Source: Haloarcula hispanica ATCC 33960
GTDB lineage: Archaea; Halobacteriota; Halobacteria; Halobacteriales; Haloarculaceae
Direction of reading: 5' to 3'
NCBI RefSeq assembly: GCF_000223905.1
Contig: NC_015948.1
Location: 2,108,001-2,172,000, forward strand
Length of the DNA stretch: 64,000 nt
A program made the position numbers and the translations under genes. The notes beneath the pieces were generated by a model. That model was given only the letters and a program-made list of their open reading frames with translations, searched no databases and was not told where the DNA came from. This document shows, one piece after another, positions 15,979 through 44,083 of the stretch (its first letter is position 1; every line of letters begins with the position of its first letter).

Positions 15979-17283
15979 ATGGAAAACCGAACCTACACGG
16001 CGGACGCAACGCCGGGTGACACGGTCACCGTCGCCGGCTGGGTCCACGAGATCCGAGACCTCGGTGGTATTGCCTTCCTTATCCTTCGGGACACCACCGG
16101 AAAGATTCAGGTCAAGTTCGAGAAAGACGAGATGGACGACGACCTCGTGGAGACGGGGCTGAACGTCCAGCGCGAGTCGGTCATCTCGGTCACCGGCGAC
16201 GTCGAGGAGGAGCCGCGCGCACCGACCGGCGTCGAAGTCACGCCAGAGTCGGTCGACGTCATCTCCGAGGCCGACCCCGAACTGCCGCTCGACCCCTCGG
16301 GCAAGGTCGACGCCGAACTCCCGACCCGCCTCGACAACCGCACGCTCGACCTCCGCAAGGACGAAGTGAAGGCCATCTTCGAGATCCGCGCAGAAGTCCT
16401 CCGCTCCGTTCGCGAGGCGTTCCGCGACCTCAACTGCACGGAGATCAACACGCCGAAGATCGTCGCTACGGGGACCGAGGGCGGCACCGAGCTGTTCCCG
16501 ATCACCTACTTCGGGCAGGAAGCGTTCATGAACCAGAGCCCGCAGCTGTTCAAGCAGCTGATGGTCGGCTCCGGCCTCGAACGCGTCTTCGAGATCGGCC
16601 CGATCTTCCGTGCCGAGGAGCACAACACGCCGCGACACCTCAACGAGGCGACCTCCATCGACTTCGAGTCAGCGTTCTACGACCACACCGAAGCGATGGA
16701 CGCCTGCGAACACGTCGTCCGGTCCGCCTACGAGGGCGTCGCCGAGAACTGTCAGGACGAACTGGAAGCGCTCGGCCTCGAAGATGAGTTCGCGGCCCCC
16801 GAGGGCGACTTCCCGCGACTCACCTACGAGGACGCCCTGGACCGCATCAACGCCACCGGCGAACTCGACGAGCCGCTGGTGTGGGGCGACGACCTCTCGA
16901 CGGAGGCCGAGCACGTCCTCGGGCAGGAAGTCGGCGAGCACTACTTCATCACCGACTGGCCCAGCGAGATCAAGCCGTTCTACATCAAGGACCACGACGA
17001 CGACGAGGAGGTCTCGACGGGCTTCGACATGATGCACCCGTCGATGGAACTGGTTTCGGGCGGCCAGCGTGAGCACCGCTTTGACCACCTCGTCGAAGGG
17101 TTCGAACAGCAGGGACTGGACCCGGAAGCCTTCGAGTACTACACCAAGATGTTCAAGTACGGCATGCCGCCACACGCCGGCTGGGGCCTCGGCGGCGAGC
17201 GCCTCATCATGACGATGCTCGGGCTGGAGAACATCCGGGAAGCGGTGCTGTTCCCGCGAGACCGACAGCGTCTGAGCCCGTAG
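15979..17283 (+). CDS. aspS: Aspartyl-tRNA synthetase, archaeal type, probably non-discriminating
   Basis: A class II synthetase of 434 residues. The N-terminal OB-fold anticodon domain occupies residues 1-105, motif 2 is [14 protein letters not shown], and motif 3 is [15 protein letters not shown] at the C-terminus. The anticodon domain has His in [11 protein letters not shown], where discriminating archaeal enzymes such as that of Thermococcus have Trp, and it lacks the corresponding Lys further on. I read this as the non-discriminating form, which also makes Asp-tRNA(Asn) for GatCAB; gatB is at 2778. The start at 15979 is preferred over the open frame back to 15883 because TTCTTAAG (about 15946-15953) is positioned for a leaderless ATG there. 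Confidence 0.95.
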
Positions 17284-17615
17284 GAAGCGAGGTTCTGACT
17301 GCAGGGAAGACCCTCGAAATCGCGAGCAGAGCGGGACCGAAGGTCCCGCAGGCAGTCGGGCGGTACCACCGCCCGACGACGGGGAGGAACGACCCGTGAG
17401 CGGCGAGACCTGAGAGCCAGCGGGACGAACGCAGTGAGTCCCGTAGGACCGACAGCGAATCTCTCCATAGGAACCTCGAAACAGCGAGCGCGAGCGTAGC
17501 GATACGCGAGCGCACTGTCTCGCAGCGGTTTGAGTTCGGCAAGTCTTGAGGGATAGCCGCGGATCGACACACTCTATCGGACCGACACGAGGACGGGAGT
17601 ACGACCCGTCCCCAA
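17284..17615. other. Non-coding stretch rich in perfect hairpins
   Basis: This 332-nt stretch after aspS has no convincing gene. It contains several strong inverted repeats: GCGGGACC-GAA-GGTCCCGC (17332-17350), GTCGGGCGGT-ACC-ACCGCCCGAC (about 17355-17377), GGGAC...GTCCC (about 17422-17442), and a GCGAGCGCG...CGCGAGCGC region (about 17486-17514). Short ORFs across it read as arginine/serine-rich shadow peptides. It could be a structured RNA, a decayed palindromic repeat cluster or a complex aspS 3' end. I could not match it to RNase P RNA or SRP RNA. Confidence 0.5.
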
Positions 17616-38929: not shown

Positions 38930-39001
38930 TCACGCGCCACGAATTTCGCGGCCAGCCGCCTCGCGGCGACTTCCTCTATCCTCCGTCGGGTATTCCGACA
39001 T
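38930..39001 (-). CDS. Possible leaderless 23-codon leader ORF before leuA/cimA
   Basis: The TATA-like CTTTTAGA (39028-39035, minus strand) is centred about 30 nt before the ATG at 39001, which opens a 23-codon ORF beginning MSEYPTEDRG and ending in TGA at 38930-38932. The enzyme gene starts 13 nt later (GTG 38916), after a GGAG element. The peptide has no leucine and one isoleucine codon, so classical attenuation is unlikely. Translational coupling or re-initiation is a better guess. Whether the peptide matters is unknown. Confidence 0.38.
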   Translation of the reverse strand: MSEYPTEDRGSRREAAGREIRGA

Positions 39002-43798: not shown

Positions 43799-44018
43799 CC
43801 TGCAGCACTACCGACTCGCTACGCTCGCCGACTCTGGTACAGAGAACGCCGAGGAGGAGATTTGAACCACGCCCAGACGGTCCGGGCGTGCGGCGCGGTG
43901 CGCCGTTCCGGGCTGCGACTGGTCTACTCCAACTCTCCACGCATCACGGTCCTGCAGCACTGCCGACTCGCTGCGCTCGTCGGAATGGCTGCAGAGAACG
44001 CCGAGGAGGAGATTTGAA
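43799..44018. repeat. Tandem partial duplication of the tRNA-Ser 3' end and flank
   Basis: Copy 1 (43799-43866) and copy 2 (43951-44018) align without gaps at an offset of 152 nt. Both run from CCTGCAGCACT through a CCGACTCGCT...CG hairpin to GAACGCCGAGGAGGAGATTTGAAC. The last element is the 3' end of tRNA-Ser (complement), identical in both copies over 27 nt. The 84 nt between the copies hold two further hairpins (CACGCCC...GGGCGTG and CGGCGC-GGT-GCGCCG). This is either an att-like scar or a decayed second tRNA gene. Confidence 0.7.
43848..43935 (-). pseudogene. tRNA-Ser-like remnant
   Basis: On the minus strand the last 20 nt (GTTCAAATCTCCTCCTCGGC) equal the T-loop and acceptor 3' strand of the neighbouring tRNA-Ser. 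Upstream of it are one hairpin in the variable-arm position and one in the anticodon-arm position, as in a type II tRNA. The T-stem 5' strand and the acceptor 5' strand do not pair. It is therefore not a working tRNA. Its right boundary is approximate. Confidence 0.4.
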
Positions 44019-44083
44019 CTCCTGAGTCCGTGAGGACAGTTGCTCTCGAAGCAACCGCCTTGGCCAGGCTAGGCTACCTCGGC
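44000..44083 (-). tRNA. tRNA-Ser (anticodon CGA)
   Basis: An 84-nt type II tRNA. Acceptor GCCGAGG pairs with CCTCGGC (7 bp). The D arm is GCCTAGCCTGGCCAAGGC. The anticodon arm GTTGC-TTCGAGA-GCAAC has anticodon CGA, reading UCG serine codons. A long variable arm holds GTCC/GGAC, and the T arm is AGGAG-TTCAAAT-CTCCT. No intron and no encoded CCA. Its 3' end is duplicated 152 nt further on. Confidence 0.97.

What the first reader, a model, noticed from the sequence alone, without database searches (positions are those of the whole stretch)
17284..17615. Hairpin-rich 330-nt non-coding stretch after aspS
At least four strong inverted repeats (two perfect over 8-10 bp) in 200 nt are far more than a simple terminator needs. 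The stretch has no plausible gene. It may be a structured RNA, a composite of palindromic repeats or a remnant of a mobile element.
Basis: seen in the sequence. Interest (0 to 1): 0.5.

Follow-up and report, generated by a model that had tools for sequence, protein, structure and literature searches.

The report
Serial spare endings behind aspS
The hairpin-rich DNA behind an essential archaeal gene is a worn stack of old copies of that gene's own ending mixed with mobile palindromes, the local form of an array seen at this one gene in many salt-loving archaea.

Summary
The hairpins are real (fold z -3.6, 0 of 100 shuffles as stable). No Rfam family fits. The stretch is a composite. (1) Nested dispersed palindromes X, Z and Y follow the stop codon. 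Relatives show the empty sites: a 65-bp X-Y insertion, then 53-bp Z inside it. (2) The rest is a decayed aspS-end array. In relatives, DNA behind aspS holds further copies of the sequence coding the AspRS terminus RDRQRLSP-stop, mostly 50-99 bp apart, each heading a hairpin unit: 53 of 80 named and 17 of 30 genus loci, 0 of 30 loci from the same phylum outside the order. Among 949 sampled genes, the three aspS genes scored are positive; one other gene has an echo. New units enter at the front, displacing the old end (two close pairs). Bodies at least 97% identical differ by 20% in the last 27 nt, peptide unchanged. A related palindrome lies in open frames of other genes. Most likely, mobile palindromes acquired the aspS ending and spread as short pieces. 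The enzyme is unknown; an RNA role is not excluded.

The parts
17257..17283 (+). Functional aspS terminus, codons RDRQRLSP-stop (CGAGACCGACAGCGTCTGAGCCCGTAG): the head of the first unit
   Evidence: All 173 halobacterial aspS loci read end in RDRQRLSP*.
17284..17327 (+). X palindrome (GAAGCGAGG...CCTCGAAATCGCGAGC), a dispersed module starting directly after the stop codon
   Evidence: Absent at the corresponding site in L062, present in L043.
17328..17380 (+). Z double hairpin (AGAGCGGGACC-GAA-GGTCCCGCAGGCAGTCGGGCGGT-ACC-ACCGCCCGACGAC), a 53-bp module inserted between X and Y
   Evidence: 53-bp insertion against L043. Further copies in the genus; similar pieces in five haloarchaeal plasmid records.
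17381..17401 (+). Y hairpin (GGGGAGGAACGACCCGTGAGC), the right half of the X-Y element
17402..17443 (+). 3' part of a short-class aspS unit (GGCGAGACCTGAGAGCCAGCGGGACGAACGCAGTGAGTCCCG); its hairpin GGGAC-GAACGCAGTGA-GTCCC
   Evidence: Same unit type in other genera.
17444..17470 (+). Displaced, decayed copy of the aspS terminus (TAGGACCGACAGCGAATCTCTCCATAG, read *DRQRISP*)
   Evidence: 8 of 10 residues match in the gene-sample scan. Better preserved counterparts in relatives.
17471..17511 (+). Second, truncated X-Y palindrome (GAACCTCGAAACAGCGAGCGCGAGCGTAGCGATACGCGAGC)
   Evidence: A fuller version follows the stop of a displaced ending in L035.
17512..17534 (+). 3' part of another aspS unit (GCACTGTCTCGCAGCGGTTTGAG)
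   Evidence: Nearly the same sequence follows endings in L039, L042 and L043.
17591..17611 (.). 7-bp perfect hairpin GGACGGG...CCCGTCC next to the stop of the convergent ORF; not shown to belong to the array

Best explanation
The stretch is the decayed local end of an aspS-linked array built by serial insertion. Each unit starts with a complete alternative ending of aspS (RDRQRLSP-stop in its own synonymous codons). That is followed by a hairpin that straddles or follows the stop codon and usually by a second hairpin. A new unit enters between the aspS body and its present ending. The new ending takes over, the AspRS protein is unchanged, and the old ending is pushed downstream, where it decays. 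In this window the displaced unit was further broken by dispersed palindromes (X-Y, then Z inside it) that land at the stop codon. Shown: nested empty/filled sites, front insertion in two close pairs, swapped tails, decay with distance, absence from the 30 relatives outside the order that were read, and near-restriction to aspS among 949 sampled genes. Inferred: the units derive from, or are relatives of, a mobile palindrome that inserts beside TTCCC-like sequence. They spread as short pieces, by an unknown ssDNA-hairpin transposase or by recombination between arrays using the repeated tail as homology. No benefit to the cell needs to be assumed, because the first copy always keeps the gene intact.
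For: Spread: a pattern for DRQRLSP* hits 127 of 146 family genomes in 19 of 22 genera, and a longer version hits 285 of 392 order genomes in 80 of 95 genera. In the listed part of these answers multiple hits nearly always lie within about 250 bp of each other. Counts: 53 of 80 named and 17 of 30 genus aspS loci carry at least one displaced copy (6 of 9 residues or better). In all 173 loci pooled there are 188 copies against 4 in the reverse complement (the pool includes loci chosen for having copies). Polarity: mean identity to the terminus falls 8.32, 7.98, 7.53, 7.0, 6.0 of 9 with rank from the gene (n = 113, 50, 17, 7, 1). Front insertion: L042 versus L043 (bodies 97.2% identical) differ by one 92-bp unit placed before about 155 nt that match almost completely, and the displaced tail keeps its unusual AGA codon; L168 versus L167 (97.5%) differ by two units before about 300 matching nt. 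Tail swap: 91 pairs (not independent) with bodies at least 97% identical differ 1.9% in the body but 20% in the last 27 nt; 46 of the 91 use a different serine codon box. Nested insertions: 65-bp X-Y, then 53-bp Z. Related palindrome elsewhere: 10 of the 30 best-match loci fetched are not aspS, 9 of those 10 hold it in a long open frame with the same reading, and one is a clean 57-bp insertion absent from 6 of 6 homologues aligned.
Against: No enzyme has been identified, none was searched for, and no transposition or recombination was observed. 27 of 80 named and 13 of 30 genus loci show no displaced copy. In the window the displaced tail is degraded: a nucleotide scan finds only 17 of 27 bases matching, no better than its control (18), so it is recognised only through relatives. 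L042 and L043 differ again beyond about 155 nt, so array content also changes away from the front. In L167 the codons just upstream of the tail are altered as well, which fits recombination with a foreign aspS end as well as element insertion. L282 has two identical endings in a row and L165 two identical unit backs, which fits local duplication. A strict class-L hairpin pattern gave 9 hits in 37 genomes, all at aspS, so the link to the dispersed in-gene palindrome rests on weaker similarity.
Confidence: 0.68

Rival explanations
1. A functional RNA structure: the aspS mRNA ends in conserved hairpins (3'-end formation, stability, or binding by AspRS itself), and selection, not mobility, keeps remaking them.
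For: The stop-straddling hairpin covaries with the synonymous codons: the complement of the tail is found after the stop in 81 of 248 units against 33.6 +- 4.3 after permutation. GT pairs exceed AC mismatches in stop-hairpin stems, 74 to 30, and in core-motif hairpins behind aspS, 11 to 3. Of 24 loci with displaced copies and a T5 run within 700 nt, 23 have no T5 before the last copy; 46 other loci with copies have no T5 there. An RNA-seq-supported 64-nt intergenic transcript adjoins aspS in Haloferax mediterranei (PMC5852579, passages). One hairpin, from a coding region, terminated transcription in Haloferax volcanii (PMC7237163, passages).
Against: No Rfam family. Function does not explain tandem displaced endings or their decay with distance. 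Core-motif hairpins in X loci show no GT excess, 2 GT to 3 AC. The GT excess may simply reflect third-position freedom in the coding arm. The window's own stop region is not an outlier in folding.
Confidence: 0.2
2. Site-specific recombination of an integron or att type: a tyrosine recombinase inserts hairpin cassettes at an attachment site formed by the aspS terminus.
For: Front-end addition, a shared repeat at every junction, palindromic units and regeneration of the gene end.
Against: Copies lie too close for a gene between them: 187 of 188 spacings are under 190 bp, one is 410-419. No integrase search was run. One unit pair was not found in the phage collection, and an exact ending pattern not in viral contigs. 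Short- and long-class junctions differ.
Confidence: 0.12
3. Local tandem duplication of the gene end followed by divergence; no foreign units.
For: Neighbouring units with identical backs occur in L165, and L282 has two identical endings in a row.
Against: In L042/L043 the new unit is unlike the units behind it but matches the first unit of another species, L038. Unit parts can be over 90% identical between genera whose aspS bodies are 81-86% identical, for example 92.7% over 41 nt between L062 and Halosegnis rubeus L278 with bodies at 82.2%.
Confidence: 0.06
4. Only ordinary REP- or PATE-like dispersed palindromes, with no aspS-specific process.
For: X has 6 to 36 pattern matches per genome in 6 genus genomes, against 0 to 2 for the reversed control. 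Haloquadratum carries palindrome-associated and small mobile repeats (PMC3119063, passages and section 25).
Against: It does not account for copies of the aspS-terminus code. 0 of 30 aspS loci outside the order show them. Among 949 sampled haloarchaeal genes, apart from aspS, two reach 8 of 10 residues: one is a tandem paralogue, one an echo of its own end.
Confidence: 0.08

Closest known systems
PATEs and small mobile repeats (SMRs) of Haloquadratum walsbyi (PMC3119063)
   Same: Short, palindromic or inverted-repeat, transposase-free, dispersed in a haloarchaeon, described there as causing no target duplication, and SMRs insert into palindromes of other elements, as Z does into X-Y.
   Different: PATEs there are tied to IS605-type ends; that was not tested here. 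Nothing like a carried host-gene ending is described in the passages read.
Bacterial REP elements with GTAG or CGTC tags (PMC3733652, passages; RAYT and REPIN papers, listing only)
   Same: Short imperfect palindromes, clustered and modular, some plausibly transcribed. X often sits at a TAG stop (GTAG-like left end).
   Different: The 2013 survey names bacterial phyla in the passages read. No RAYT association was tested here. I know of no REP that carries a gene's last codons (recalled).
Rickettsia palindromic elements (recalled; listing only)
   Same: The related haloarchaeal palindrome lies in open frames inside diverse protein genes.
   Different: Different sequence and host domain. At aspS it forms gene-ending arrays rather than internal insertions.
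Integron cassette arrays and CRISPR leader-end growth (recalled)
   Same: Directional growth at one end, a repeat at every junction, older units decaying distally.
   Different: No integrase, cassette gene or spacer-acquisition enzyme is linked to it by anything seen here.

Membership tests
Rfam structured RNA | Match to a curated covariance model | tested here: not met
   No match at gathering score in the window stretch or in six loci scanned, four of them aspS arrays. Weak hits to unrelated miRNA/IRES models only.
REP/BIME | Dispersed multi-copy short palindrome, mostly extragenic | tested here: met
   X-pattern counts against reversed control. 22 of 30 fetched rows flagged intergenic by a rough ORF filter; two of the rows are one site.
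REP/BIME | GTAG/GGAG-type tag at the 5' foot | tested here: inconclusive
   In 20 of 30 X rows the element is fused to TAG or TAA; in 9 of 30 that is the stop codon of a called gene (two rows are one site). No fixed GTAG.
REP/BIME | Associated RAYT (Y1) transposase | not tested
PATE (IS605-derived) | Ends shared with an IS605-type transposon | not tested
   No comparison with IS605 ends was made.
MITE | Terminal inverted repeats of a known transposon and a target-site duplication | tested here: inconclusive
   X-Y and Z insertions show no clear target duplication. Comparison with transposon ends was not made.
Integron cassette array | IntI integrase and attC/attI sites | not tested
   No search for an integrase was run. 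Only spacing and layout were seen.
Rickettsia-type protein-coding palindrome | In-frame insertion inside unrelated protein genes | tested here: met
   9 of 10 non-aspS loci of the related palindrome lie in a long open frame, but an empty site was shown for one gene only. This is for the relative, not for the window copy.

The most novel reading that the evidence does not exclude
A gene-ending cassette system: selfish palindromic DNA that carries an interchangeable 3' end for one essential gene (aspS). It is added at the front like an integron or CRISPR unit, so insertion is invisible to the protein, and it has cycled through a whole archaeal order, replacing the last codons of the gene again and again.
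Probability: 0.4. Interest if true: 0.85.

Novelty: new variant of a known kind. Interest (0 to 1): 0.7.

Why it matters
If right, it shows how a mobile sequence can live inside an essential gene at little cost, by bringing along the codons it displaces. It gives a natural record (an ordered, decaying stack of former gene ends) in which the rate and direction of insertion can be read across hundreds of genomes. It also warns that the 3' ends of genes, and trees built from them, can be replaced wholesale while the protein stays the same. The related in-gene palindrome would extend Rickettsia-type protein-coding palindromes to archaea.

Tried and rejected
Rfam match: none. Simple terminator: no terminator-like site in the stretch. 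Protein-coding reading of the stretch: only mechanical ORFs. A general gene-tail duplication process was rejected after the 375- and 574-gene scans. Of two non-aspS 8-of-10 matches, one is a tandem paralogue and one a real-looking echo. G350's aspS lay in the sample but was missed by my gene filter. Stop-codon readthrough into the next copy was set aside because the spacing of copies shows no multiple-of-3 preference. The GT versus AC test for RNA or DNA folding was undecided. In one search the stop hairpin was strong in 168 of 256 units, but also in 90 of 256 with swapped backs, so shared composition explains part of it. The phylum pattern for a DPxRLxP ending was uninformative (4 of 294) and was replaced by the protein-based control. 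A first horizontal-transfer table used ungapped body identities and was wrong for loci with indels; it was redone with gapped alignment. Peptide searches of plasmids and phages returned nothing, perhaps because the low-complexity filter masks the peptide. In ten answered literature searches no listed title or abstract start concerns arrays of aspS endings or this palindrome in haloarchaea. Only the best-ranked papers were listed, and the library holds open-licence papers only.

Full report
Where it is. The window lies at G000:C3:2108001-2172000 of a 3,890,005-bp genome in three contigs. The genus is Haloarcula, judging by the nearest named aspS genes (the first eight, L203-L210, are Haloarcula species at 94-100% identity). 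aspS is confirmed by Pfam (tRNA-synt_2 and the OB-fold domain). The next ORF, on the opposite strand, has 68 residues and no Pfam match. The one after it is a bacteriorhodopsin-like protein.

The observation. The inverted repeats exist at the stated place and fold better than shuffles on the + strand (z -3.62), less so on the - strand. Nothing in Rfam fits.

First layer: dispersed palindromes. A blastn search of 32 genus genomes, the window's own included, matched pieces of the stretch in 26 of 32, from 1 to 25 places each, and the pieces fall into modules. In the window these are X (17284-17327), Z (17328-17380) and Y (17381-17401). The corresponding site is seen empty, with X-Y, and with X-Z-Y in three species: L062 has none, L043 has a 65-bp X-Y insertion directly after the stop codon, and the window has a further 53-bp Z inside it. 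In L062 and L043 that stop codon belongs to a displaced ending, in the window to the functional one. An X pattern occurs 6, 30, 36, 24, 28 and 16 times in six genus genomes, against 0, 0, 2, 0, 1 and 1 for the reversed pattern. In 20 of 30 fetched X rows the element is fused to a TAG or TAA; in 9 of the 30 that triplet is the stop codon of a gene called by a rough ORF filter (L176 and L182 are one site). Eight of the 30 rows were flagged as inside an ORF, and some matches of this loose pattern are plainly coding DNA.

Second layer: displaced endings of aspS. Reading the DNA behind aspS in 30 genus genomes showed that the protein always ends [10 protein letters not shown], but the last codons and what follows come in several types. 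The code for the ending recurs further downstream, on the same strand and with its stop codon, though not in a fixed frame to the gene. The window carries one worn copy at 17444-17470. In the named set, chosen only for having an aspS gene and capped at the best 80, 53 of 80 loci carry one or more copies at 6 of 9 residues or better; in the genus set 17 of 30 do. Over all 173 loci read, which include loci selected because they had copies, there are 188 copies against 4 in the reverse complement. Of the 188 spacings 153 are 50-99 bp, with no multiple-of-three preference, and similarity falls with distance from the gene. Whole-genome pattern searches agree: 127 of 146 family genomes and 285 of 392 order genomes have the ending, and in the listed parts multiple hits lie together. 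Among listed exceptions, G422 has two identical endings 2.88 Mb apart, and G053, G055 and G235 have one far hit each that ends in TGG. Thirty aspS loci fetched from 38 searched genomes outside the order but in the same phylum show none (0 of 30 at 6 of 9 or better).

Is it special to aspS? In 375 genes of G013 and the window, only the two aspS genes reach 8 of 10 residues. In 574 genes of G350 and G224, aspS of G224 reaches 10 and two others reach 8. One of those two is a tandem paralogue. The other is a universal-stress-like gene with an echo of its end 11 nt downstream (its name is my reading of the sequence). aspS of G350 was in the sample but was not scored, because my gene filter missed it.

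How the array grows. L042 and L043 have aspS bodies 97.2% identical. L043 has one extra 92-bp unit next to the gene. Behind it the L042 arrangement continues almost unchanged for about 155 nt, including an odd AGA arginine codon in the now displaced ending; after that the two differ again. L168 and L167 (97.5%) differ in the same way by two units, followed by about 300 matching nt. Units that are first in one species are displaced in another. Ninety-one pairs (not independent) with bodies at least 97% identical differ at 1.9% of body sites but 20% of the last 27 nt, and the latter figure is about the same (20-24%) at all four distances tested. In 46 of the 91 the serine codon has switched between AGY and TCN, which needs more than one base change. 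Displaced copies at 7 of 9 or better differ from the resident ending by 694 synonymous and 110 nonsynonymous codon changes, where random single changes would be 27% synonymous. Because copies were recognised by peptide, this excess is partly built in.

Unit anatomy. I sorted units by length into a short class (66-76 bp, 35 distinct) and a long class (84-96 bp, 54 distinct) and aligned 27 of the 35 and 34 of the 54. Each class has a hairpin around or just after the stop codon and a second hairpin. In the long class the 3' arm of the second hairpin is the TTCCCG of the next ending. The first hairpin varies together with the synonymous codons: 81 of 248 units against 33.6 +- 4.3 in 500 permutations, none of which exceeded 47. 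Related sequences inflate such a test. Many stem loops share a GA-RY-GNA-RY-GA core. That such loops are unusually stable in single-stranded DNA is recalled.

Link to a wider mobile palindrome. The long-class hairpin has relatives elsewhere. Of the 30 best-match loci fetched from a 392-genome search (171 with a match), 20 are aspS and 10 are not. In 9 of those 10 the palindrome lies in an open frame of 186 codons or more, encoding peptides such as ASGGSSDERSESDG; for two of the nine (L374, L379) the codon-bias score preferred the opposite strand, and L370 is unclear. In a Halostagnicola larsenii plasmid gene for a CoA ligase it is a 57-bp in-frame insertion beside TTCCC, missing from 6 of 6 homologues aligned out of the 25 fetched. 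A stricter form of the hairpin was found only at aspS (9 hits in 37 genomes). Phage records for one unit pair, and viral contigs for two exact patterns, gave nothing.

What I conclude. The stretch is a worn composite of mobile palindromes and old aspS endings. Description, nesting, front addition in two pairs, and absence from the relatives read outside the order are shown. That the units are mobile elements carrying the ending, and that they move as short pieces by transposition or by recombination through the repeated ending, is inference. In L167 the few codons before the ending changed too, which favours recombination with a foreign aspS end for that case. A role of the hairpins in the mRNA is possible. 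In 23 of 24 loci with copies and a T5 run within 700 nt the run lies beyond the array; 46 loci with copies have no such run. An RNA-seq-supported 64-nt transcript adjoins aspS in Haloferax mediterranei (PMC5852579, passages; they do not say on which side). A hairpin from a coding region terminated transcription by 59% in a Haloferax volcanii test (PMC7237163, passages).

Known relatives. Haloquadratum PATEs and SMRs are the nearest published elements I found (PMC3119063, passages and section 25). Bacterial GTAG/CGTC REPs (PMC3733652, passages) and Rickettsia palindromic elements (recalled) are analogues. The ten answered literature searches named in Tried and rejected listed nothing on arrays of aspS endings.

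Noticed in passing
window 38938-38990 (-): leuA-Halobacteria RNA (RF03001), 72.8 bits, a cis-regulatory RNA.
   Followed up: no
window 43999-44083 (-): A tRNA gene (RF00005).
   Followed up: no
L405:4211 (+): A gene ending APMPVTVVR* has an echo PPMPVTAVR* 11 nt after its stop: possibly a second gene with a displaced ending.
   Followed up: partly
L367, L368, L372, L373, L374, L377, L378, L379, L381: A haloarchaeal palindrome of about 57 bp in open frames of protein genes, coding for SSDERSESDG-like peptides; looks like an archaeal counterpart of Rickettsia palindromic elements.
   Followed up: partly
G422:C1:17891 and G422:C1:2897958 (L145): Two identical aspS endings 2.88 Mb apart in one genome; perhaps a second aspS or an assembly duplicate.
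   Followed up: no
L147, L151, L238, L247, L250 and others: Several aspS endings use the arginine codon AGA (GAGACAGACAACG); in L042 the AGA codon extends pairing with the hairpin arm.
   Followed up: partly
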